Assembly (NCBI GenBank): GCA_002081555.1 | Contig: MZNV01001320.1 | Span: 1-64,000, forward strand | Direction: 5' to 3' | Origin: Protostelium mycophagum | Lineage: Eukaryota; Evosea; Variosea; Protosteliida; Protosteliaceae | Length of the DNA stretch: 64,000 bases | Shown here: piece after piece, positions 1,083-64,000 of the stretch | Numbering within the stretch: position 1 is the first letter of the stretch | Layout: the number at the start of each line of letters is the position of its first letter | Translations under genes and position numbers: made by a program | Notes under the pieces: generated by a model | Seen by the model: the letters and a program-made list of their open reading frames with translations, nothing else | Database searches by the model: none | Told to the model about the DNA's origin: nothing

Positions 1083-4000
1083 TCAAAATGGGTGGTAAGT
1101 CGGGTTGTAGCTGCTGGGAGGTACATAAGCCCCCGGCGTGTAACCCCCTGACCCTCCCGCTGCCGGCGCAGCGCTCTTCGAAGGGCTTCCATAGTTCTCT
1201 GGGTTGCTGCTGGTTGTAGACGGAGTCTTCTTGCGGTCATTCTCCACGATCGTCTTGATTTGCTTCTCGACCTTTTGCTTCCACTCTTCGGCGGTGTGAG
1301 AGGTGCTCTGGAGTCGGTATTGTATCTCCTCTGCGGTGACGTTTTCGGCCATCACTTCCATGGTGTCGAGCACGATGGCGATGTGATTGGGCGAGTTTTT
1401 GTCTTCTCTCATCACGCAGAAGAGCCATTTGCCTGAGATGTTTAGATATGGTTGTTGAAAACAGTGGTATGGACAGCTCTTTACATCGGGCTGCATATTT
1501 TTTCTGATGATTCAGACTGCAATCGTATTTTGGACATTTACCCAAGTCAAAGTCAATTCGCACGAGGATGCATCTTTTTGTGGCAAAGCCGCAGCATAAA
1601 CATATTCTGGTGCAAAATGCCCAGCACTCCACACACTTTTATGCGGCAGAGCCGCAGCACACAAACACATTCTGCCGCAATAAAAATATTCACCTTGCCA
1701 AGGGTCATAACTAAACTCGCCGATCACCACAAAATTTTTGTCTCTCGCTTTCACCCTGTTGTACTCGTGCAGAAGCGCCTCTTTGTTTAACAGCTTGTGA
1801 TCTATGTTATACTCCACCATGGCCTCGTCCCTGCCCGTCTTGACGAAAAATCTAAACTTTGTGTTGTGATGGTTGCTGTTGTTGTCCGTGACAATCTTGA
1901 AATCCACGGAGAGTTTGTCTGTGTATTTCCACTTGTAGAGAGTCGGGGAGCTGCGGAGGGGATAGGATTCGTCGACGTGGGTGAAAATGAGACCGTCCTG
2001 GAAATTTCAGTGAAATTTCGGGGATTCGGAGGTCTCACGGTCTTGTGGTTCCTGGTGTTGTCTTTGTAGATGCGCTCTGACCCTTTGGTGGTGATCATCT
2101 TGAGAAGGGTGCCGAGCTCTCTATCTCTTGTTATAAAGAAGAAAAGGTGTGCTACACATCCGGAAAAACAGTTTAAAAGTTTAGGTGATTTCGACGGTCA
2201 CGTGACCTTGACGACTAAAAATAGCACAAAAAACTCACCCCTTTTTTTTGAATTGCTTTCCGCACATATCGAAGGGCAGCTTTTCTCCACTGGATCTGTA
2301 CCTCTTTACCGCCTCACCGATGATTCCCAATCTCTCATCTAGATGTTTGGGAATGACGATCTACAACGCTTTAACAATCTACAACGACTTTTTTCTTCAA
2401 TTTCCAGAAATTCTTTTGATGGACTTGAGAAATTATCGAGAAAAAGACCTCGAAATTTCCCGGAAATTTCGACTTACGTTATTGTTCCACTTCATGACGT
2501 CGAAGAGCAAGAACATTTGTGCCGGCTTGTTCTTGTCTTTTCCGAGGAAATTGACCATTTCTCCATCAAAAAGGCATTCCGCGCCAAAAATGTGGTACAA
2601 ATCGACTGAAGTCTCCACTTGGTAAAAGTCGTAACGGCGGTTGCACAGGTAAGAGCCGTTAGGCGTCACCATCAAAAAGTACCTGGAATATATTTGAATT
2701 TTGAGTTTTTCTTTCGGGATTTTTATCAACATGAAACGATGACATTGTGCAGATGTCGCGTGCGACATCATGGTTTCAACAGGATGAGAAACTTTTTGTA
2801 ATTGCAATCTAAAAATACAAATCACACACAACCATTTCAAAAAAATAAAAATACTTCAAATACCTGATTCCGTCCGTCTTATCTGACACTCTGTACTCCT
2901 TCATCTGGATTTCGGAGATGACTCTCCTACTGAAATTGACGGGCATGCTCCCAGGGAAATCTGTACGCTGACCGGACCACTGGGAAAATACCGAGTTACA
3001 TTCCCGGACGAGTTCGTTTTGTTTTTCTTGTGAAACTTTTCGCATGAAGGAAAGATCTTTCTTTTGGTACCCGAAAAGTCCTGGAATATTCAGTAATGTG
3101 TCGTTGTAGATGCACATATTTGTATTTTCCAACAGAAAAATTTCCAGATTTCAAGAAAAAAAGTTAAAAAAATTCCTGTTAAAAAATTACAAAAATATTA
3201 AATACCATAAACAGTCTTCCAGTATTCGTTGATGATGACTCTGAGAGGTCCTTCCATCTTCTGCAGAGTTAAAGAGGGTAAAAATTTCTTCAAGACGTCC
3301 ACATCGAATTCGACCTCGGCCTCATACACCGTCTGTGCGCCCTGGCCTGCCGTGGTACTCCTGTTGTATTTAAGTTTTTTATCTATCTTATTGTTGAAAT
3401 TTCGGTGAAAATTCGAGTGAAACTTCGGTAAAAATCAAGTGAAATTTCAAAAAATCGAGTGAAATTTCGGCGAAAATTATGGGATAGTTAAATGAAATTT
3501 CGGTGAAAAATGACCTCTCTATGACTTTGGTCAACTCGATCATGAAGGGCTGGGGACTCGTCGCCTGCTGGAATGCGTAACTTCTCCTCTCTTTTTCTCT
3601 GACCATCTGCCATCCTGACGGAACTTCCGTACGCGTTCCAAGAACATGTTCGCGGGCGACACTGACTCTATACAGAATGAATAAACACGGTATGGACAAC
3701 AGCAATAAAAAAATGCCCAGCACAAGTGTGCGTCCCGACGGTGCAGTTGATGTAAAAGTTGAGGCAAAGAATGCTCAGCACAGATCTTTCTGATGATACG
3801 CAGTTTGCAAAAGTCATGCCCATTGAGCAGGTTTTATTCGGCTTTGCACAAAAGTGAAAAATTGATATCGATCTACAATGGTGTAAATACCTAGAATCAT
3901 ATGGCATATGTACATCTCGTCTCAGATCATCATGCTCCAAACTATGCATGTGAGATGGGATGAATAAAGAGAAGAAATAATCTTTACCTCTGCTTGCGTT

Positions 4001-4532
4001 GAACCATGACCTCATTGGGTGCGTGTTCATAACGTCTCATACGGACTTTATCGTGTACCACACCCTCTTCATCTTCCCATTCTGTAAAGATATAGTCACT
4101 ATGCCTCGTCTCTGTCAGATCGATTCCCCCCACTGAATTCAATTTGTTGACCAGGAGCTCATAATGTGTCTTGTCTATGGAGGCATTGAATGATCTGTCG
4201 GGCATAATAGTTCCGAGACGGACTTCTAATTCATGCTCTGCGATTTCTTCTGCATTGACAGATTTTGCCGCCTCTATAAGGAATTGAAACATGGAATCAG
4301 TGACATTCACATGAGCTATGGCATTCTTTGCAGATACAGAAGCACTATAAAATTGTCAATCAGATCAATTCGAGATCAGCTGATGTACTGAGCCAAATGG
4401 TGGCCATACTCACTTTTCCGCCTTCTCTTTGGCATGCTTGGCCACATCACCCAGCATATTATCGAGATCAAAAGAATCATCTGTCTTTTGTCTTTTCTGA
4501 GCAGGCTGTTTGGCCTGCGGTTTTCTGTCCAT
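1083..4532 (-). CDS. Bifunctional mRNA capping enzyme: tunnel-type RNA triphosphatase plus guanylyltransferase
   Basis: This gene adds the 5' cap to nuclear pre-mRNA. The start is chosen at 4532 (MDRKPQAKQP), joined by an intron (4413-4345) to the next exon. The N-terminal half carries the triphosphate-tunnel signature: ELEVRLGTI (first metal-binding strand), a KVRMRRYE strand, and an acidic strand EAEVEFDVDVLKKF near 3300. This is the Cet1/viral fold, not the cysteine phosphatase used by animals and plants. The C-terminal half is guanylyltransferase: KTDGIR with the nucleotidyl lysine (about 2870), ECLFDGEMV, FDVMKWN, DGLIFTHVDE, YKWKYTDKLSVDFKI, and the OB-fold segment WLFCVMREDKNSPN. The tail is Pro/Gly/Ser-rich and ends NPTYHPF. 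I see about ten exons. Introns carry repeated GAAATTTC words (3395-3510) and a pair of GC hairpins (1580-1656). No methyltransferase domain is visible. Neighbour DDX41 is read the same way, 160 bp upstream. Confidence 0.85.
1580..1656. repeat. Two GC hairpins in an intron
   Basis: TGTGGC-AAA-GCCGCA (1580-1594, one mismatch) and TGCGGC-AGA-GCCGCA (1642-1656, perfect) sit about 60 bp apart, each followed by a similar ACA-rich stretch, inside the last intron of the capping enzyme. They belong to the dispersed hairpin family described in the findings. Confidence 0.75.
3395..3510. repeat. Intronic cluster of GAAATTTC words
   Basis: In this capping-enzyme intron the word gaaatttc recurs in an irregular array, separated by cggtgaaaa or gagt-like spacers. 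Three exact copies and several variants (gaaacttc, gaaaattc) occur in about 115 bp. It looks like decayed short tandem repeats. Confidence 0.6.
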
Positions 4533-27890: not shown

Positions 27891-28571
27891 ATGAGAGTTC
27901 TTTCTACCATCCTCTTCCTCTGCCTTTCGCTGTACATAGTCCAGGCCCAGCTAGTTGTACCCTCAGTACACGATGATTGCCAGAGCAGTTGCCCCTCTTC
28001 TAACAGCACTTGTTGTGGATGCTGCGGCTCCGACAGTTTCTGTAGCGGAAATGCCATCTCAAGAAGGTGTTGCCCCGCAAATACTGGCTTCTGTGGTTGC
28101 ATATCCAACAGACGCAGCTGGTTGTACCCTCAGTACACGATGATTGCCAGAGCAGTTGCCCCTCTTCTAACAGCACTTGCTGTGGATGCTGCGGCTCCGA
28201 CAGTTTCTGTAGCGGAAATGCCATCTCAAGAAGGTGTTGCCCCGCAAATACTGGCTTCTGTGGTTGCATATCCAACAGAGCCTTCTGTTCGGGCTCCGTC
28301 TACAACTCAACCCACGTGTCTGGGTACAACACTTTCGGTGCCTGCTTCGACAGCTCTTCCGGTAAGACACCCACCCATCAGTGATGATTAATGACGTGTA
28401 GGTGCAACATGCACATACAACCCCAACCCCAACTTGTGGATCGTTTGTCCCGCTGGCTACTCTGCTTGTGAGTCCAACAGCTACTTCTCTTGCTGTGATG
28501 CCGGCTCTGTTTGCACCACAACTTCCGCCGATTCCTACCCAGTCTGCTCACCCAAGAACGCTTCCGCTTAG
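27891..28571 (+). CDS. Small secreted cysteine-rich protein with internal DNA duplication
   Basis: I do not recognise the family. The start at 27891 gives a signal peptide (MRVLSTILFLCLSLYIVQAQ), followed by a cysteine-dense segment (DDCQSSCPSSNSTCCGCCG, SFCSGN, RRCCPANTGFCGC). A 167-bp block (27948-28114) is repeated at 28115-28281. Because 167 is not a multiple of three, reading straight through shifts the second copy out of frame; splicing from one copy to the same point in the other restores it. After the repeat the frame reads AFCSGSVYNSTHVSGYNTFG, then an intron (about 28363-28401, ending gacgtgtag) and a last exon ATCTYNPNPNLWIVCPAGYS to SPKNASA. All of this is probably extracellular and disulphide-bonded. 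The end is followed by a short agcataaag duplication. Confidence 0.65.
27948..28281. repeat. 167-bp tandem duplication within the Cys-rich gene
   Basis: Two adjacent copies (27948-28114 and 28115-28281) are nearly identical, differing by only a few bases (for example cacttgttg versus cacttgctg), so the event is recent or the assembly is at fault. Each copy contains AAGAAG|GTGT (28061-28070 and 28228-28237). Confidence 0.85.
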
Positions 28572-30232: not shown

Positions 30233-33200
30233 TTAAGCAAGAATAGGTAACTCGGTCATTCTGAGGTATCCTGCACCGAAAGGAATCATCTCAAACTCCT
30301 TTAATTCTCCAATGGGGTGGACTGGACTCTGAAGGTATTCAGAATCCCAGATCGTCTTTTTGCAAACATTGCGGCTTGCCGCGCCACGAAGGCTCAAAAT
30401 ATGGAAATCCGTTCGATAGTTCACCTTGGGGGGAACTACGGCGGCATTTCTGTCGGTGCCCCAAGTGATGGGTGCAAACTTGGCCTTCACCTTCACTGGA
30501 GTATTCAAAGAGAAGGGCTTGTCTCCAACTTTGCCCTTGGATATGTCAGCCTTAAAAAAAATCATAAAATTTGTGCAGAAAACCCTTTTCGCATTTTCTA
30601 TGCGATTTGCGGCTTTGCCGCAAATACAAGACACAACCCGACGCATTCGAATCATTTGCGTCGCTTACGCTGTATTCGAACTGGAGTGACTTGTCCAAAT
30701 TGCTCTTGTCCAACTGAATTCCCCAGCCGAATGACATCTCAGGCGTGATCTCGTAATCATACGAGTTCATGTAGTAGTGTGCTGTCTGCTTCATCTTTTG
30801 GCCGATAGGAAGAGAGTACAGGATGGGTCCTCTATAGATAGACACGGCACCTGTCGGTGTCACTATTGCCCTCTCTATGTGACATACCGTTGAAGCGCTC
30901 GACAATGCGGAATTTGAAGTTGAATTTGACTTGGACAGTCGTGACGGCGCCTCCCTTGACGTCCACCTTCGTTGGTAAAGACATTGAAAACAGGTGATCA
31001 AGATATTATAAAAATGGTCAAAGTCAAAGGACGAACCTTGGCTTCAGTTCCAGCAGCAGCAGTCTTCACGGTGCTCATGTTGATGGTGATTTGGGTGTCA
31101 TCAGCCCATGTCGGCATCCTGATATAGAAGGGAAAGTCTTTAGCGGCCTTGATGGTGAAGCTAATCACGTCCTCGAAAGGATACTGAGTCTGTGACGTGA
31201 TGGAAATGTCATTTCCATTTACGTTGGTCCTGTACGAGTTATGATTAACTTGAAGATAATCTTTACTTGAGGGTAGAAGGACCAAAAGTGGCCGCAATGA
31301 TGCCATTGTCTTGTGTCTATAGAAATGAGCGAGTTGAGTGATGTATGTGTGGCACCTTTAAGAACATGTGGGACACGTATTTGGGCCATCCATTGACAAA
31401 GTTGGCGGTACAGCATCCGAACCAAGGTGCCAGGCCGAAGACATTTGCGTCTGCACCATCTGACAGGTAGATCCAAGATGACAATCTGGCCGAAGAGATC
31501 TCATTGCTCTGCAGATGTCATCAAAATGATAATGATGATGGGTTGGGTCACCTGTTGTAGATAGACATGAGCCCACATGTCATCGGTGGTGGATGCGGGC
31601 ATCGCATTAAACGCGAGGGACTCAATTCTGTCCGCCATCGCGGACAAACCGGTGTGTCCATACATGAATACGTAAGAGTAGAGTGTCTCTACAACGGTGC
31701 AAGTCTCAGCACCTGATCATGATCAATCATCATGTCAAAAATGGATGTTCATACCTTGCGAAGGGTTGAGACCGGCAAGATGCTCGGAGCATCTATTTTT
31801 ATCAGTAAGAAATCATATAATCAATAATAATTAATTAAATAAAATTTACGTGTGGATACCGGAGGCCATGCTGTGGTACTTGTCGACAATGTTCATTCTG
31901 TCGACCGTCGAAGCGTACTGCTCGTCCGTGGGTTCGTATCTGTGAGGATGAGTCCATCGAAAGGTGAACCTTCACGAACCTTGACCAGACTGCCGAACTC
32001 TTCATGGCTTGTCCCACATTAACACCATGAGTCCAGAGCCCCATGCATGATCCATTGCATGCTCCCTGGAAGAATAAATCATGTTGAGCATGTTTTCAAT
32101 CTTCTTACATGAGGGAATTTAATACCACCGAATTGGTCTCCTCTATCTTGGAAAAAGTGGAGCCAATCAACTCCTTGGGAGTGGACGATGGAGGCAAAGT
32201 TCATGAGGAATTCCTGTCTTCCACGTGGATAGTTATCGTACATCCAAAAGATAGAATAAAGAAGGTCTTGGTAACGGAACTGCATGAGATCAGAGCGGAA
32301 AATGGATGATCACGATCCACCTGTCCCCACTCAAACAAAGGGTTGGTGAGCAGCTTGGCTCTCTGAACAGTGAAATACTTCCACATGGAGTCCACGATCT
32401 GCATGTCTTAATATGATGAATCTTGAAAAGACCTACGGCAGGCGCGAAAGAAGGATTAAGCTCGGCGTATTGGATCAGTGCCATCAGCAGAGGCATCCTG
32501 CAACTCTTTAGAACCTCCTCGAATTATATAAACATTTACTTGGGCCATGCGTCCTTATCATCTCCGTACCATCCTTCCTTTGTCTGGCTTTTGATAATGT
32601 ATTGGATGTAACGATCTACTTGTGCTGTTGTGGCGGCATCCTTGGTGAGGTAAGCAGTGGGTACCATTCCGTTCAACCAATAAGGAACTCTCTCTCCATA
32701 CTTTCCAATGTTGTCGCCTGTCTTTCCACCGATCCAAGAAGAATTAGCGATGTCAGCCCAAAACTGAGTGTGTCAGATGACTCATGTCTTTGGTTGTACC
32801 TCAGAGAGGTGACCTCCAAGTCCTGTGGCTTGTATTTTTAATTGGTTGAATAGCCATCCTGTTGGTTTCACGTCTCCTGTCTTGAAAGCAGAGTATTTGA
32901 GTGGCTTCAACTTCTTCTCAACTGCACATGTGAATACCGGATCGAAAATGCATGGAATATCAATACCTTTCACGCCCATGGTCATGCAGGGATTTCCTGA
33001 CACGGCTTTGAGTTCATTTTTCAGCCAGCATAAGGATTGAGTTCCACATGCTCCTCCAGGTGTTTTGATTACCCATGCAACACAACCTGTAAAATGATCA
33101 GCATCAGAAATTCCAATCCTGACGAACTTTCTCGCTGATTGCAAAGAGCTTGACAGTCTTCAGGTTTCGCTGTTTGTTTGAGCACCGTGGGCATATTAGG

Positions 33201-33284
33201 GAGGTCGCCATATGGGCGGTCGAGTCCCGCCTCGTAGGCGACAGAAATCGCCAAGAGACACGAGATGAAAAAGAGTCCTCTCAT
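30233..33284 (-). CDS. Secreted PAN-domain plus GH127-like (DUF1680) glycoside hydrolase
   Basis: The start at 33284 gives a signal peptide (MRGLFFISCLLAISVAYEAG). An apple/PAN-like module follows with KPEDCQALC, GCVAWVIKTPGGACGTQSLCWLKNE and PCMTMG. The rest matches the DUF1680/GH127 (beta-L-arabinofuranosidase-like) fold: YWLNGMVPTAYL, RYIQYIIKSQTKEGWYGD, THGVNVGQAMKSSAVW, the signature GTETCTVVETLYSY and FNAMPASTTDDMWAHVYLQQ, then a beta-rich tail (VISFTIKAAKDFPFYIRMP, FGWGIQLDKSNLDKS, YLRMTELPILA). It probably acts outside the cell or in food vacuoles on arabinose-containing polysaccharide; the substrate is inferred from family only. The catalytic cysteines of true GH127 were not verified. 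Many short introns; one contains a perfect hairpin (30607-30623). Confidence 0.8.
30607..30623. repeat. Intronic hairpin
   Basis: TTGCGGC-TTT-GCCGCAA, perfect 7-bp arms, lies in an intron of the GH127-like gene and is a member of the dispersed hairpin family. Confidence 0.75.
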
Positions 33285-33865
33285 GTTGGTGTTTTGGTGA
33301 TTGTGATCTGTTTTACAGACAAACCGGCAAGATGGGGATGTCAGAATTTGAAATCATTCTTCCATTTCTACGCGGCAACTGACGTGACATCAACGTTGCG
33401 GCCAACAAACGTCAATGGAATCTTCTGTCGGCGGTTATCATGATACACAGGTGTTCTAAAACTATTCTTCGCCCACCTTTTTTATCAGAGAAATGTCGCT
33501 CGCTAAGTCGAACTGCCAAAAATTTCAGGCCCTTTGCAAGAACAACTCACTTACAAATGGGATTGGTAAATTCTCCAAACACGTGAAGCTTTTACGGTTT
33601 GATAACTCAAAATTCACGGTTATAATAGAGATGTGGCTGATCTATACTGGATATCTATAATGATCACGGTGGTGAACTTTACGCCATATCTTCTATTGTC
33701 ATCGTCATTGCCTCCTTCGATATTCTCGGCCACTGCGTGAGATCGACCCTTTTGGCGGGAACGGTCTGAAACTTTATGATGATGAGAATTTTGGAATGTA
33801 AGTAATTAAACCATCGATATTTATATGAGGCTTGTGTCATTAGAAGAGTCCGGCAGCTAGACACC
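33285..33865. other. Intergenic region upstream of GH127-like gene
   Basis: It should contain the promoter of the GH127-like gene and the 3' UTR of the next gene. A 61-codon minus-strand frame (33679-33864) is protein-like in part (FQTVPAKRVDLTQWPRISKE) but has no relative I know and no clear splice partners, so I do not call it. Confidence 0.45.
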
Positions 33866-48638: not shown

Positions 48639-51600
48639 ATGAGAGGAGGGAAATTTCAAACACCTGTGAAGGCAAGAAGAAAACATTTACCTCAACTAAC
48701 GTCTCTGTAGAGACCAGGTCCTGGGCAAAACCTGAAACCACAAAATACGACAGGTAATCACACTCCATTTTCTCCACTCATACTTTACAGACATGAGCTC
48801 TACATCAAACATTTTCTCAGATGAAAGGAAAAACCCAGGTTGACCATTAATCCTTCATCAATTTAATCATCTGACCTCTCTCAGAGGAATCATCTCCAAT
48901 TCTGACCGGTTTCACAAGTGGAAATGGAAATAAAATCGGTGCGCCTCGCGCCGCAAGTCTTGTCAGAGCACAGAAGATTTTAGAGGACACTAAGGAGGAA
49001 GCACACCCAGAATCTGTGGGATTCCAAAGCGGAAGGGGCACCAAAATCGCGCCACCTGCAGCGGCTAGTCTGGCGAAGGCACAGAGGATTTTCGCAGAAA
49101 CTTCTGGGGAAGAGATCGGTGTACAGACGGGATTTACAACGGGGAAAGGCCAGAAATCATCCGAGCCATCCGCTGCAAGCAAAGCAAAGGCGGAAGCTAT
49201 TCTTATGGAAGATACGTCTACAGCGGACCAAAAGAATGAGACACCCGCGGTGCAGGGTTTTGTGATGACTGGATTTACGACGGGAAAAGGCAAGAAGTTG
49301 ACTGAACCGTCTGCTGCAAGTAAGGAAAAAGCAGCGGCCATCTTCAAAGAGGACGACACAATGGAGGCACATGTTAATACCGGATTTACAACGGGGAAAG
49401 GCAAGAAGCTGTCAGAACCTTCTGCCGCGAGCAAGGCCAAAGCGGAGGCTATTTTTAGAGACGATATGAATGGAACAGACCAAAAAGATGAGCCTCAAGA
49501 CTTTGTGATGACGGGATTTACAACGGGGAAAGGAAGAAAACTGTCCGAGCCTTCTGCTGCGAGTAAGGCAAAGGCAGAGGCCATATTTAGAGAGGAAGAC
49601 ACCACAACAATAGAGAAGATAGACGATGTACAGACTTTTAATACCGGATTTACAACGGGGAAAGGCAAGAAGCTATTAGAACCCTCTGCCGCGAGCAAGG
49701 CGAAGGCTCAGGCCATCTTTCAAGAGAAAAGCGCATCTACAACGGACCAAAGAAATGAGACGTCAGAGACACAAAATTATGAGATGTCAGGATTTACATC
49801 AGGGAAAGGCAAAAAGTTATCCTCGCCCTCCGCTGCGAGTTTGGCCAAAGCGCAGAATTTTCTTAGCGATGACAACTCTACAGACGCATCTACAACGAAC
49901 AACAACATGCCAATGACAGGATTCACTAGTGGGAGGGGCAGTAAATTGGCACCACCTTCTGCGGAGAATCTGACAAAGATGGAAGAATTGTTCTCAGAAG
50001 ACGAGAAATCCGTAACAAAAAAACCAAACTCCACCAAAATATCGGTGAGTACATTGATACTCTTCTTTGAAGATTTTTTAATATTTTTTTTAGAATTTTT
50101 AATATTTCTGGTTGCTTATTTATTTTGATTTTTTAAATGATGTTGTGATCTCCTCTGATTTATTGTTCAGGAGAACACCACTAATCTTTCCGTTGGGAGC
50201 GGTAAAACTCTAAAACCCTCTCCTTCCAATCTCGAGAAGGCCAGATATTTCAGAGAAAATTCCACGCAAAGCGCTAGCCAAAAAGAAGAGACAGATGCGC
50301 TGATGGATTTGGTCAATTGTGACGATGCAGAAAATTCACGGAAAGATCCACAATTTAAGTCTGACTTGGACCAATTGGACGAGGACCAACTGGATCAAAT
50401 TTTTGCTACAAAACCAGAAGCAAAAACTCCGGTGACTCCGGTGAACTCTAAGGCGGGAAAGAAGTTTGTTTATCCCTCCCCTTCCAACGGTCAAGTGTGA
50501 GGAAATTTCAAAGTTCAAACTGAGAGTAACCGCCACAGAACCATCACGCCGCGAAAATTACTGGCTCGCCCGGCAGTCGGTGCCTCTCCGTTAAAAACAC
50601 CAAAACGTCCCTTTGAGACCTACACGTCATCTGCCAAGAAACCCTTTTCCGCGCCAAAAATGACTGGGAAAAAAGAGGATTCTAATGGCGGCAGTTCGCC
50701 CGCAGCATCCCCGTATCTTCAGAGAAAAAGACAGAGACTTTATGATGAGAATTTGACCACCCCCAAGAAGAATGAAAAAAAAGTGGAGCGGGGGGAGGCG
50801 TCGAACAAGATCACTCTGAAGGAGTTTGAGAAAACAAACAAATTGGTCAGGAGAACGGCAATGGAGCTGATGAGCGCTCCCTATAATTTGCCCCCACACG
50901 TCATCAGAATGACGTCAGAATCTGCCAAGTGAGTCTACAACTGCTTTATATCTTTATCTTCTAATTTGATGATGAAATCCCGTCTAACATTTTCTAAACC
51001 ATAATTCAGTCCAATTTCAAAGAGAAACTAATGGCACGCAGAGATTTTATATTTAAGGGGCACATTGATGAGGTAGATCACTTTCCTTCCACAGAAAACA
51101 CCGGAATAGGTAAGACAATTTTCTACAAATAAAAATATTGTTAACTTGCTGAAAAATCTCCTCCGGTTGTTGCAGAATGATCATATATATTCTGGTTTTA
51201 TCTAAAAAAACATCTACGACTTGCCAAAATGTCGACAGGTCCTGCCGACATGCGCCGCTCCATGATTGCCACTGGATCGGATCAAAAATTCGCGACACCA
51301 GAGTGGGTGGAGAATCACTACCGCTGGATCGTATGGAAACTCTGTTCTCTGGAACGATCTTTCCCAGAACCCCTGGGAAACCAGCTCCTTTCACCCCTGT
51401 CAGTCCTGTCACAATTACGTCATCGCTATGAGAAAGAAGTGGAGCAGGCGAAGCGCTCCGTGATCAGAAAGATCTGTGAGAAAGATGAGAGCTCCACGAG
51501 GTTCATGGTCCTGTGTGTTGCGTCGGTGAAGGACGCAAATGCCGGTAGTGTGGAGGTATTATTTTTTCCACTTGTCAAAACACCACAGAGCTCTGTTGCT

Positions 51601-53903
51601 TCACAAGAACATACATTGAATTTATTCCGAAAAATACCAAAAGATAACAGAAAATAGCTCACAGATGGGTGGTACAGTCTGAGGGCATCCCTCGACGAAT
51701 TCCTCACCGCAAAATTGAAATCTGGAAATATCTATCCGGGTCTAAAACTCCGGATCTTCGGTGCGCAGGTAGATGACGTCATCGTTTTACTCAGATGAAA
51801 CTGAACGTTGTAGATTGAAGGGCTGGAGAATGCTGCTCCTCCGCTGGAAGCTACTTCTGCCACACTGAAGTTATCAGCTAATTGTGTAAGAAGGGCGGCT
51901 TGGTACACGAGATTAGGTCTTTTTACACCATTGTAGATCGTCAATGATTGACTTTAACAGGAGCACAGCCTCAGATCACATTCCCTGTGACTCTATCATC
52001 ATTAACCCCGACTGGTGGTCTTATCCCCTGTGTACAGGTACGTCGACACCTGTCGACATCCACAGACACGTGAAAAATTTTGCCAGGTTGTAGTGCATAG
52101 GAAATATCCGAAACTATTCAGAGAAGTGATTGGGGAGGGTGGTGTAGTTCGTGACGGGAAAGAAGAAGAGTTGGTCGAGCTTGCTCACCAGCGAAAGAGG
52201 TAGTAATAATGTTGTCAACAGATGAGACAACGGAAGACTCTCCCTGTGATAAAATACCGAGATCGAGTTGTAGAGGCGAACGTTAAGATATCTTAGGGAG
52301 CTGCTCGTCTCCAAACGGTCCGCGGAAATTTGGAAGGAAATTGAAGACGAAGAGAGAGAAGAGTTGAATGACGAAGTTAAACCAGGAGCTTTCCGTGTCC
52401 GCCAGAAGAAAAGTCAGTGAAATTTCGATGAGTTTCAAGTGGTCAACATCGTTTCAAAATATGGAGAAGCTCTGCAGCTCCACAAACGGAAAAAATCATT
52501 CTGATAATTCTCCCCACGAGCCGTTGTAGAACCTGACATCTTACGCAGAGGAATTACCACAGATGACAAGCGGGGAGGATTTATACAAGGAGATGTTGAG
52601 GCGAAAATCCGAAGTAAACGAATTCACGACGAAACTGACCAGGGAACAAAGGGAGGAATTTCACACTTTTTACGCCTCTAAAACAGAAGAGAACAAGAGG
52701 CGGTTCGACTCTGAAATGGCGTGAGTTATTTTTAACATCAAGCCGACTGCTGGACCATCTTGGTTTTATGCGAGAATGAAAAGGCGCGAATGTTTATTTT
52801 GAAATTCGAACTGAATAAATAGGGCCGTGATGGAAGAAACGCGCAGGAATGTGTCCAGCTTCTTCCGAGTCAAACTGACAGATTGTCCATCTACACCTCG
52901 CCAGAACTTTTCATCAGCACTTCTCACTATTTGGCGTCCTGACGAATACCTCATGTCATCCATAACTGAGGGTTCTGTCTTTAAGATTTACGGCTTGTCC
53001 CCCTCAAAATCTCAAAACGGTCAGTCCCTTGGTTTCCCGCCAAAATTGAAAATGTCGAGTTGTAGATGAGTTTTAATCTGCCATAGGGGATATCATCCTG
53101 CTGAACAGTACCAATGCTATGAAGTGGGAAAAAGTTAACGTCAGCGAAACCGCGTTGAGGCACGTCTACCAACCGAGAACAGCCACGAGACTTTGTGACC
53201 TGGGGAACAGAGCAAAAGGAGAGGAGGTAAGAACTATAAATAGACCCACTAAATATCAAAATTCCATATCTCAACATGTTCAGATCGACCTCACCTGCTT
53301 TGTTCTACACTTGGACAAACAAGTCACATCTGAAGGCACAAACTACAACGTGTTTGTCTCAGATACCTCTTTACGCGTAGCTGTTGTACATTTAAGGTCC
53401 GGGGGTGTTCTCGCCGCACAGTTGGAGCGTTGTAGAGAGAAATTTCCGGTAATCTTCGGGGTGAACGTCACGTACCGAGGATTCGACGATCTACACTCGG
53501 TCGAACAATTGGCGGGAGGTGATGGTTGTCAGGTAAAGATAATCTAAATTTAGCACGAATTCCTCACATCTTGAAGCTGTCAAACACTCGACCACCACTC
53601 CATCTTCGCATCCCGATGGAGGATCTGCAGAAATGGGTCACCTCGAGCAACAAAGAGGATATATCAGAGATACAGAAGTATGTCATGTCTTTAACAAAAG
53701 GAGAAAACCCCACAACACCCGCACATCTCACACCCGCACGAAGGAATGACCCATCACAAACCTCCATGGAGAAGTTCTTCTCTCCCATCTGTGGACAGAT
53801 GGATGAGTCCATGGACATCACGGAAGAGGAAGCAGATGCGGCTTTGGAGGCGTCTCTGTTGCAGATGAAGAAGAAGGAGATGGCAAAGAATTCTCTTTCA
53901 TAA
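48639..53903 (+). CDS. BRCA2: BRCA2 recombination mediator
   Basis: BRCA2 loads RAD51 onto single-stranded DNA for homologous recombination. The start at 48639 gives MRGGKFQTPVK; a GC-AG intron (gcaaga...ctgtag) then joins RPGPGQNLKPQ. Nine clear BRC repeats and one weak one (48900-50250) occupy mostly one long exon. The DNA-binding domain follows: the helical part has WVENHYRWIVWKLCSLERSF and YEKEVEQAKRSVIRKI; OB1 has ELTDGWYSLRASLDEFL-like sequence, LKLRIFGAQ, LEATSATLKLSANC and AAWYTRLG; a charged Tower-like stretch (LTREQREEFHTFYASKTEE) leads to OB2 (LTIWRPDEYLMSSITEGS) and OB3 (VFVSDTSLRVAVVHL). The C-terminus carries a PIP box QTSMEKFF and a UIM-like helix. It is about half the length of human BRCA2. 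No PALB2-binding motif is evident. Exon limits between 52000 and 52800 are approximate. Confidence 0.92.
48905..50010 (+). repeat. Array of nine BRC repeats
   Basis: Units begin near 48905, 49016, 49127, 49268, 49379, 49511, 49643, 49787 and 49916, with a degenerate tenth near 50183. The core is GFTTGKGKKLSEPSAASKAK with a hydrophobic-Phe end (AIF). Units 3-7 are almost identical even in DNA (ggatttacaacggggaaagg), so they expanded or were homogenised recently. The FxxA alanine is Gly in every clear unit. Confidence 0.9.
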
Positions 53904-60174: not shown

Positions 60175-61691
60175 ATTGACCCCTCCCTAGGGTTAGTACC
60201 CACCCCCTCTAACTCTTCAGAGTCTGTCATCACGTCCCCCACAACTGGCCAGAAGAGGAAGATTACACCTGCTGATTTCGAGTTTACCAAAGTTTTAGGC
60301 CAGGGAGCCTTTGGGGAGGTGCGTCTACAATACTCATTATTATGAAAACAAATTTTTTATAATCGATAAATATTTTATTATAAAATAACATCTCATCAAG
60401 GTGAAACTTGCAAAGGAATTGAGAAACGGGAATGAGTATGCCATCAAAATGCTGGACAAAAATCATATCATCTCCTCAGGCAAGAAGAAGTATGTACACA
60501 CAGAGAGAAACATATTCAACCTGTTGAGCCACCCCAACGTTGTCAAACTATTTTATACCTTTCAAGACGCTACCACATTGTGTATCCTTGTATATTTCCG
60601 AGAAACCCCAGGGAAATTTCGTGGTTGATTTTGTGGCTCCACCTCATCAGACGAAATTTCGTGATGTTTCAAATTTTATTGTAGAGTTGTAGATGCTCAT
60701 GAAATTTCCTTGACTTTTCAGATTACGTCTTGGAGCTCTGCCCCAACGGAGACATAGGTTCTGCCCTAAAAAGAGTCGGAATCTTCGAAGAAAGTGTCAC
60801 CCAATTTTACGCCGCAGAAGTGATTAGCGCATTAGAACACATGCATGGAAAAGGTGTAGTACACCGCGATTTGAAGGTAAATAATTCACAAATATGCATC
60901 ACTTCTCTCGTGCCCTTCGCTGCGGCATAAAATGATTCCACGAACAACTTTTTTTCTTTAGATTTTGATGATGTACAGCCCGACAACATATTACTGGGTC
61001 AAAATGGTCACGCAAAGTTAACAGATTTTGGCACTTCTAAAGAGTTGGGATCAGATGAAAGAGGTGAGCTTGGAATCTCCAAGAAAACTGGTAGAAAAAT
61101 TGACATATGCAGCACGTTCAGATTCATTTTGTGGCACGGTGAGTTTTACGTCTAAAATTGCTCCTTTTTACCGATTAAATCTCAACGAATTCTACGTGAA
61201 ATTCCAACGAAATTTCAGGCTGAGTACGTACCACCAGAATTGTTGACGGAGAGCTATTGCGTGAGAGCCTCAGATCTGTGGGCGTTAGGATGTATAATTT
61301 ACCAATTGTTATGTGGAAAGACACCTTTCAAAGGGGACACGGTAATGTCATTTTGACATTTTTGACATCTCAGCATGTTGTAGATGGAGTTGTAGTTGCT
61401 GATTTTTCTAGAATTATTTCACCTTCGAGCTGATCAAGGCTGGGGACTTGCATTTTCCCGAAAACTTCCCCAAACATGGTAGAAACCTCGTTGAGAGACT
61501 TCTGGTAAATTTTTGTACCAGAATTCATCTTTACAACGAACCAGGTCAAAGATGCAGACCAAAGGCTTGGCGCACGTGACTACACAGAGCTCAAATCCCA
61601 CCCATTTTTTGTGGGCATCAACTTTGAGACGCTGCATGAGAGTACGCCTCCCACGATTAAAGCTCCAGAGGGGTACTCTTCCTCTATATAA
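59998..61691 (+). CDS. PDK1-like AGC protein kinase
   Basis: A kinase closest to 3-phosphoinositide-dependent kinase 1, which phosphorylates the activation loop of Akt, S6K and other AGC kinases. Motifs: PADFEFTKVLGQGAFGE and VKLAKELRNGNEYAIKML (Gly loop, Lys), HTERNIFNLLSHPNVVKLF, ALEHMHGKGVVHRDLKP, AKLTDFGTSKELG, TFCGTAEYVPPELLTESY, SDLWALGCIIYQLLCGKTPF, and QRLGARDYTELKSHPFF. The end TPPTIKAPEGYSSSI carries no PH domain, unlike animal PDK1. No in-frame Met lies between the kinase domain and the upstream stop, so the N-terminus must come from upstream. The simplest model starts at 59998 (MSPTIVISGSTD) and splices from 60033 to 60175, skipping the lipase's last exon; it then shares an exon with the lipase or forms a fusion with it. 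Confidence 0.8.
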
Positions 61692-63073: not shown

Positions 63074-64000
63074 TTACACATGGATTGGTATGACATATTG
63101 ACGATTCAAACTTGTCATATGAACATTGAGCCACCGAAATTTCACTGCAATCTTCAACAAGGAGAATAGACTCACGTTTTGGCTTGATCTTGATATCTTC
63201 GTATCTGACAGGTTTGCTGAGGTCATCGATGGGAGAGGTATCTTCTGCGTAGATGAGATACCCCACATCTAAATTCAAGGCGTGCATGTAGGCCATCATC
63301 TGGTAGATGTCGGCTGATTTGGACTTGCTCTCGTCTTCTTCGTAGAACCGAAGTTCTTGTGTCGTTGTAGACTTGAAGAATATCAATTAAAATATTATAA
63401 AATAATTCGGAACTAACCTTACGTCTGAGCCTCTTGTATTTACAATCACCAACAAATACACATTGTGTATGTTCCCAGAACGTCAGATCAGGTTTGATGA
63501 TGTAACTGTTCTGGTCATCTAATTGGATCGATGCATTCTGTCTCAAAGTTTTGAGACTCGAACCGATACTCTGCAGGGCTTTGGTCTCCCTCAAGGCATT
63601 GATAGTAAAATCTTCAAACACCTGTCACGTTGTAGACAGACAAATTTTTCATGGAATTTTCACCTTTGGCATGTACAGTAGGAAAATCGGGGCGTCAAAT
63701 GAGCCTGTGAAAATAAATCAAATCGGTTCAATTAAAAATAAATTACCAACAAATCCAAAGATCGAAGATTTTCCGCGAAAAATCACGGAAATTTCACAGA
63801 AAACTTACCGTGTTGAATCGTCCACATCAAATTCTTGATAACAAATTTGGAAATTTCAATTGCCGGTAAGTAGTGGTCATCCACACCCTTGCTGTACCCC
63901 ACAGTGGGGAGATTATTGCTTTGAAACTGTACAAGTGACACGTCATCCAACTTATTGTCGATCAGCCTGAGGCTCCTCCGAAACTCCGGGCTCAAATTTT
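63074..64000 (-). CDS. McrC-like PD-(D/E)xK endonuclease, C-terminal part
   Basis: The gene runs off the right edge, so its 5' end is missing. Visible on the minus strand: LRLIDNKLDDVSLVQF, YSKGVDDHYLPAIEISKFVI, then SFDAPIFLLYMPKVFEDFTI with the McrC-type FE(D)F block, INALRE, and the nuclease core IKPDLTFWEHTQCVFVGDCK-YKR, where PD and DxK are the expected catalytic residues. Next comes SADIYQMMAYMHALNLDVGY and LIYAED, the QxxxY and LIY segments typical of bacterial McrC. It ends IKIKPKLKFRWLNVHMTSL to VIPIHV at 63074 if the intron at about 63172-63142 is used. In bacteria McrC cuts methylated DNA when driven by the McrB GTPase; no McrB is in this window. Introns with gtgaaa/gtgagt donors, some carrying the GTTGTAGA octamer, show it is a resident nuclear gene and not contamination. 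Confidence 0.75.

What the first reader, a model, noticed from the sequence alone, without database searches (positions are those of the whole stretch)
63074..64000. McrC-type restriction endonuclease subunit in a eukaryotic, intron-bearing gene
The nuclease core keeps PD...DxK and the downstream QxxxY/LIY blocks of bacterial McrC, yet the gene is split by short introns like those of its neighbours. McrBC defends bacteria against modified phage DNA. A domesticated eukaryotic copy could police methylated foreign DNA, transposons or engulfed bacterial DNA. The partner McrB-like AAA+ GTPase might lie next to it, beyond position 64000.
Basis: partly seen in the sequence, partly recalled or inferred. 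Interest (0 to 1): 0.8.

Follow-up and report, generated by a model that had tools for sequence, protein, structure and literature searches.

The report
Bacterial-type McrC nuclease in eukaryote
A eukaryotic genome carries an intron-split, apparently intact gene for the DNA-cutting half (McrC) of a bacterial anti-phage restriction system, a protein that published work says eukaryotes lack, so it is a good candidate for a bacterial defence gene captured by a complex cell.

Summary
The finding holds. On the minus strand at 63074-64000, removing four GT-AG introns (104, 42, 46, 31 nt) gives a 233-aa, 5'-truncated protein that matches only McrBC subunit C in Pfam (PF10117, 73.1 bits, E 2.4e-20). 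Splicing raises its score against a bacterial McrC HMM from 61.9 to 154.6 bits. The catalytic residues are kept: D122, D136-x-K138 (E. coli D244, D257, K259) and Q169xxxY173. The locus is truly eukaryotic: a PDK1 gene (E 6e-92) with seven introns of 22-140 nt lies 1.4 kb away, and BRCA2, VPS13 and capping-enzyme genes share the window.

The closest bacterial relatives (31-42% identity) form a Chloroflexota/Acidimicrobiia-rich McrC group. The window protein sits on a long branch in or next to it, so I infer an old transfer from an unresolved donor. No McrB lies in the window; in bacteria it usually sits just 5' of mcrC, here beyond position 64000, so the partner question stays open. Two papers state that McrBC lacks eukaryotic homologs, or that no McrC has been reported in eukaryotes. 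Policing of modified DNA is plausible but untested. It is a new member of a known nuclease family in an unexpected domain of life.

The parts
63809..64000 (-). McrC exon 1 as seen here (5' end cut by the window end; first full codon at 63998); finger-to-nuclease region
   Evidence: Pfam PF10117 from profile position 146; splice test
63705..63808 (-). Intron 1, 104 nt, GTAAGT...TTTCACAG, contains GAAATTTC
63664..63704 (-). McrC exon 2, 41 nt, (G)SFDAPIFLLYMPK
63622..63663 (-). Intron 2, 42 nt, carries an in-frame stop
63418..63621 (-). McrC exon 3 with the nuclease core: VFEDF helix, D112, PD (D122, 63487-63489), D136xK138 (63439-63447)
   Evidence: Invariant in 73 bacterial McrCs for D122, D136, K138; equivalent to E. 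coli D244, D257, K259
63372..63417 (-). Intron 3, 46 nt
   Evidence: Removing it raises the HMM score from 118.3 to 154.1 bits
63176..63371 (-). McrC exon 4: longer linker STTTQELRFYEEDESKSK, then ADIYQMMAY (Q169xxxY173) and GYLIYA
63145..63175 (-). Probable intron 4, 31 nt, GTGAGT...TTGCAG (least certain)
   Evidence: Adds 0.5 bits only; joined tail aligns with the conserved C-terminal strand; a 22-nt intron exists in the neighbour gene
63074..63144 (-). McrC exon 5 and stop codon: KFRWLNVHMTSLNRQYVIPIHV*
60175..61691 (+). Neighbour, not part of the system: 3-phosphoinositide-dependent kinase 1 (PDK1) gene with seven introns of 22-140 nt, convergent with mcrC; shows that the host is a eukaryote

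Best explanation
This is a eukaryotic nuclear gene for McrC, the PD-(D/E)xK endonuclease subunit of McrBC type IV restriction systems. It was acquired from a bacterium long enough ago to gain spliceosomal introns and diverge to about 35% identity, while the catalytic residues were kept. Most likely it is still a metal-dependent DNA nuclease driven by a McrB-like AAA+ GTPase, cutting DNA recognised as foreign or modified. Shown by sequence: family, intact active-site residues, introns of the host's own type, eukaryotic neighbours. Inferred: horizontal origin, nuclease activity, partner, substrate and defence role. The confidence given covers the identity claim with an active nuclease and a McrB-type partner; for identity alone (McrC in a eukaryotic gene) it is about 0.95.
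For: PF10117 as the only Pfam family, E 2.4e-20. Profile match to solved McrC of T. gammatolerans (2.1e-39) and E. coli (2.5e-28). D122, D136 and K138 invariant among 73 bacterial McrCs. Splicing raises the score from 61.9 to 154.6 bits. PDK1, VPS13, BRCA2 and capping-enzyme genes in the same window, PDK1 with the same kind of introns. A McrB homologue lies close to mcrC in 77 of 83 bacterial loci, some redundant, and McrC is known to need McrB for cleavage (PMC3874153).
Against: Substrate and activity are untested. The N-terminal finger domain that contacts McrB is not in view. No transcript data.
Confidence: 0.55

Rival explanations
1. Solo domestication: the nuclease was kept without McrB and works alone or with a host factor, for example in DNA repair, degradation of engulfed or organelle DNA, or transposon control.
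For: No McrB in the window. A linker of about 18 residues after the DxK motif is longer than in the bacterial relatives.
Against: The McrB position (5' of mcrC) lies outside the window, so absence is not shown. Bacterial McrC is not known to cut without McrB (PMC3874153).
Confidence: 0.3
2. A decaying or recently dead gene: the copy is a remnant without function.
For: Long branch; C-terminal boundary uncertain.
Against: No stop or frameshift in five exons, and the catalytic positions are kept after about 65% divergence, which is unexpected without selection.
Confidence: 0.08
3. Artefact: bacterial contamination or a chimeric assembly joined to a eukaryotic contig.
For: A restriction nuclease is unexpected in a eukaryote; the gene lies at the window's edge.
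Against: Introns interrupt the gene and resemble those of PDK1 1.4 kb away, including the shared GAAATTTC motif. Base composition does not jump.
Confidence: 0.02
4. Another PD-(D/E)xK family (such as Cas4, RecB or Mrr-like) misread as McrC.
For: Weak Cas4 match in PADLOC, E 0.011.
Against: PF10117 at E 2.4e-20 with no other Pfam family; alignment extends through the region before the nuclease core; solved McrCs are the only significant PDB matches of the profile.
Confidence: 0.02

Closest known systems
Bacterial McrC of the Chloroflexota/Acidimicrobiia-rich group (L061, L010, L012, L007)
   Same: 31-42% identity over the nuclease half; same PD...DxK, QxxxY and LIY motifs; near-identical CVFVGDCKYKR block in L012
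   Different: Single-exon, next to mcrB in a bacterial operon; no longer linker after the DxK motif
E. coli McrC and T. gammatolerans McrC (solved structures 6hz4, 6ut5)
   Same: Same family by profile and equivalent catalytic residues
   Different: Very distant in sequence; bacterial/archaeal; partner McrB known
Divergent McrB-like GTPases of animals (mentioned in PMC11090510)
   Same: A McrBC-related component in eukaryotes
   Different: Those are the motor subunit, described as highly divergent in function, with no associated McrC reported; this is the nuclease subunit

Membership tests
McrC (PF10117, McrBC subunit C) | Profile match above the curated cut-off | tested here: met
   73.1 bits against 23.9
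McrC (PF10117, McrBC subunit C) | PD-(D/E)xK catalytic residues (E. coli D244, D257, K259) | tested here: met
   D122, D136, K138
McrC (PF10117, McrBC subunit C) | N-terminal finger/stalk domain that inserts into the McrB ring | not testable with these tools
   Encoded beyond position 64000; match starts at profile position 146
McrBC type IV restriction system | Adjacent McrB AAA+ GTPase | tested here: inconclusive
   None in the window; the expected side is outside it
McrBC type IV restriction system | GTP-dependent cleavage of modified DNA | not testable with these tools
   Needs biochemistry
Eukaryotic nuclear gene | Spliceosomal-type introns and eukaryotic neighbours | tested here: met
   (by sequence only; no transcripts)

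The most novel reading that the evidence does not exclude
The gene is one half of a complete, working McrBC system in a eukaryote, with a McrB-like GTPase just upstream of position 64000: a motor-driven, modification-dependent restriction enzyme used as eukaryotic innate immunity against foreign or modified DNA.
Probability: 0.3. Interest if true: 0.85.

Novelty: new member of a known kind. Interest (0 to 1): 0.6.

Why it matters
Published work states that these machineries lack eukaryotic homologs (PMC7680126) or that no McrC has been reported in eukaryotes (PMC11090510). An intact, intron-bearing McrC would add a restriction nuclease to the prokaryotic defence modules captured by eukaryotes. 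It also raises a testable question: how a cell that may methylate its own DNA tolerates an enzyme from a modification-dependent cutting family.

Tried and rejected
A single-protein PDB search found nothing meaningful; the profile search did. Protein scans of viral contigs gave no close relative (one search gave one distant one, L060), the phage search none, and an exact-DNA scan of viral contigs did not find the source contig. No whole genome is held for the window, so McrB could not be sought elsewhere in it. The trees did not resolve a donor: the quick tree drew the window protein inside the Chloroflexota-rich group; the careful tree put it just outside with weak support (84/65), and the AU test did not reject including it (p 0.35). 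I did not name the organism, because no eukaryotic sequence collection is held here.

Full report
Observation. The minus strand of 63074-64000 reads as five exons separated by four GT-AG introns at 63705-63808, 63622-63663, 63372-63417 and 63145-63175 (104, 42, 46 and 31 nt). The joined 233-residue protein is open at its N-terminus because the window ends. Pfam gives a single family, PF10117 McrBC, 73.1 bits, E 2.4e-20, profile positions 146-318 of 318. NCBIfam gives only the McrC model PRK09736, E 2.8e-8, below its equivalog cut-off.

Introns. They pass every sequence test available. Against an HMM of 11 bacterial McrCs (window protein left out) the full splice scores 154.6 bits; without removing intron 3 the score is 118.3, and the best unspliced frame scores 61.9. 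The 31-nt intron adds only 0.5 bits and is the least certain, but the joined tail aligns with the conserved C-terminal strand of bacterial McrC. The neighbouring PDK1 gene, reconstructed here, has seven introns of 22, 40, 70, 80, 82, 102 and 140 nt, so a 31-nt intron is not out of place. McrC intron 1 and two PDK1 introns share the palindrome GAAATTTC, which occurs 31 times in the window against 3.3 expected.

Eukaryotic context. Spliced PDK1 matches solved PDK1 at E 6.1e-92. Other ORFs carry VPS13_N, BRCA2 helical and OB1, mRNA capping enzyme, Ras-family, NAD_binding_4 (fatty acyl-CoA reductase type) and GPAT_C domains; the capping and OB1 matches are slightly below their curated cut-offs and VPS13_N, matched in one exon only, is below its own. 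Base composition does not jump at the McrC gene. Contamination is therefore very unlikely.

Active site. In an alignment with 73 bacterial McrCs, the residues matching D122, D136 and K138 are invariant; Q169 and Y173 are present in 72 of 73, the other row being gapped there. A profile that includes the window protein matches T. gammatolerans McrC (E 2.1e-39) and E. coli McrC (E 2.5e-28). The E. coli catalytic residues are Asp244, Asp257 and Lys259 (PMC6624300). The nuclease is predicted to be intact; that it cuts DNA is inferred.

Relatives and origin. tblastn and genome scans find many bacterial relatives. The best scores come from Chloroflexota, Acidimicrobiia and related MAGs, 31-42% identical. 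In evenly drawn samples, 21 of 301 Chloroflexota and 14 of 246 Actinomycetota genomes gave a match, against 8 of 349 Pseudomonadota (mostly weak) and 1 of 199 Planctomycetota, each sample including the genome that centred it. Trees place the window protein on a long branch in or next to that group. The direction of transfer, bacteria to eukaryote, is inferred from the wide bacterial distribution and the single eukaryotic occurrence seen here.

Partner. In 77 of 83 bacterial loci (partly redundant) a McrB homologue lies near mcrC, nearly always directly 5' of it, most with GPPGTGKT and MNTADR. Searching the window with three McrBs gives nothing. The 5' side of the window gene is beyond 64000, so absence is not shown. 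In eight close relatives Pfam recognises only the AAA motor of McrB and no base-reading domain, so the substrate of the ancestral system is unknown.

Mechanism. In known systems McrB rings translocate DNA using GTP and the McrC dimer cuts it (PMC6624300, PMC7680126, PMC3874153). The most likely reading is that the eukaryotic protein keeps this nuclease role with a McrB-like partner and acts on foreign or modified DNA. Solo domestication is the main rival. Neither can be decided without the sequence upstream.

Novelty. PMC7680126 says these machineries lack eukaryotic homologs. PMC11090510 says animals have divergent McrB homologues but that no associated McrC has been reported. Literature searches for eukaryotic McrBC found no counter-example. 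Only open-licence papers were searched, and unreported eukaryotic entries may exist in databases not held here.

Noticed in passing
window, 31 sites, e.g. 2001-2019, 3396-3501, 60613, 60653, 60701, 61209, 63788: The palindrome GAAATTTC occurs 31 times against 3.3 expected. In the two genes reconstructed here five copies lie in introns. It may be an intron-spreading element (introner-like) or a splicing signal of this genome.
   Followed up: partly
window 61091-61112: A 22-nt GT-AG intron in the PDK1 gene, supported by the restored kinase sequence TARSDSFCGTAEYV; very short for a spliceosomal intron.
   Followed up: partly
window about 1086-4355, minus strand: A capping-enzyme gene whose guanylyltransferase part matches weakly seems to follow a tunnel-type RNA triphosphatase-like stretch; neither Pfam nor PDB confirmed that stretch. 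If real, it would argue against an animal or plant host.
   Followed up: partly
window about 31000-33350, minus strand: A GH127 beta-L-arabinofuranosidase-like gene (middle domain E 8.5e-10) split into several frames; possibly another gene of bacterial origin.
   Followed up: no
window 48875-51654, plus strand: BRCA2-like gene: helical and OB1 domains at 51181-51654, preceded by a long repeat array that looks like BRC repeats (tandem repeat 49374-49720, period 132).
   Followed up: no
window 27948-28279: A 167-nt unit tandemly duplicated at 98% identity inside a cysteine-rich reading frame; recent duplication or assembly effect.
   Followed up: no
L007-L033, L045: Many of the closest bacterial McrBC loci come from MAGs whose isolate names (IRC, APA, RHO, SB06xx) suggest sponge-associated bacteria. 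McrBC enrichment has been reported in two Ircinia sponge metagenomes (PMC9531527).
   Followed up: partly
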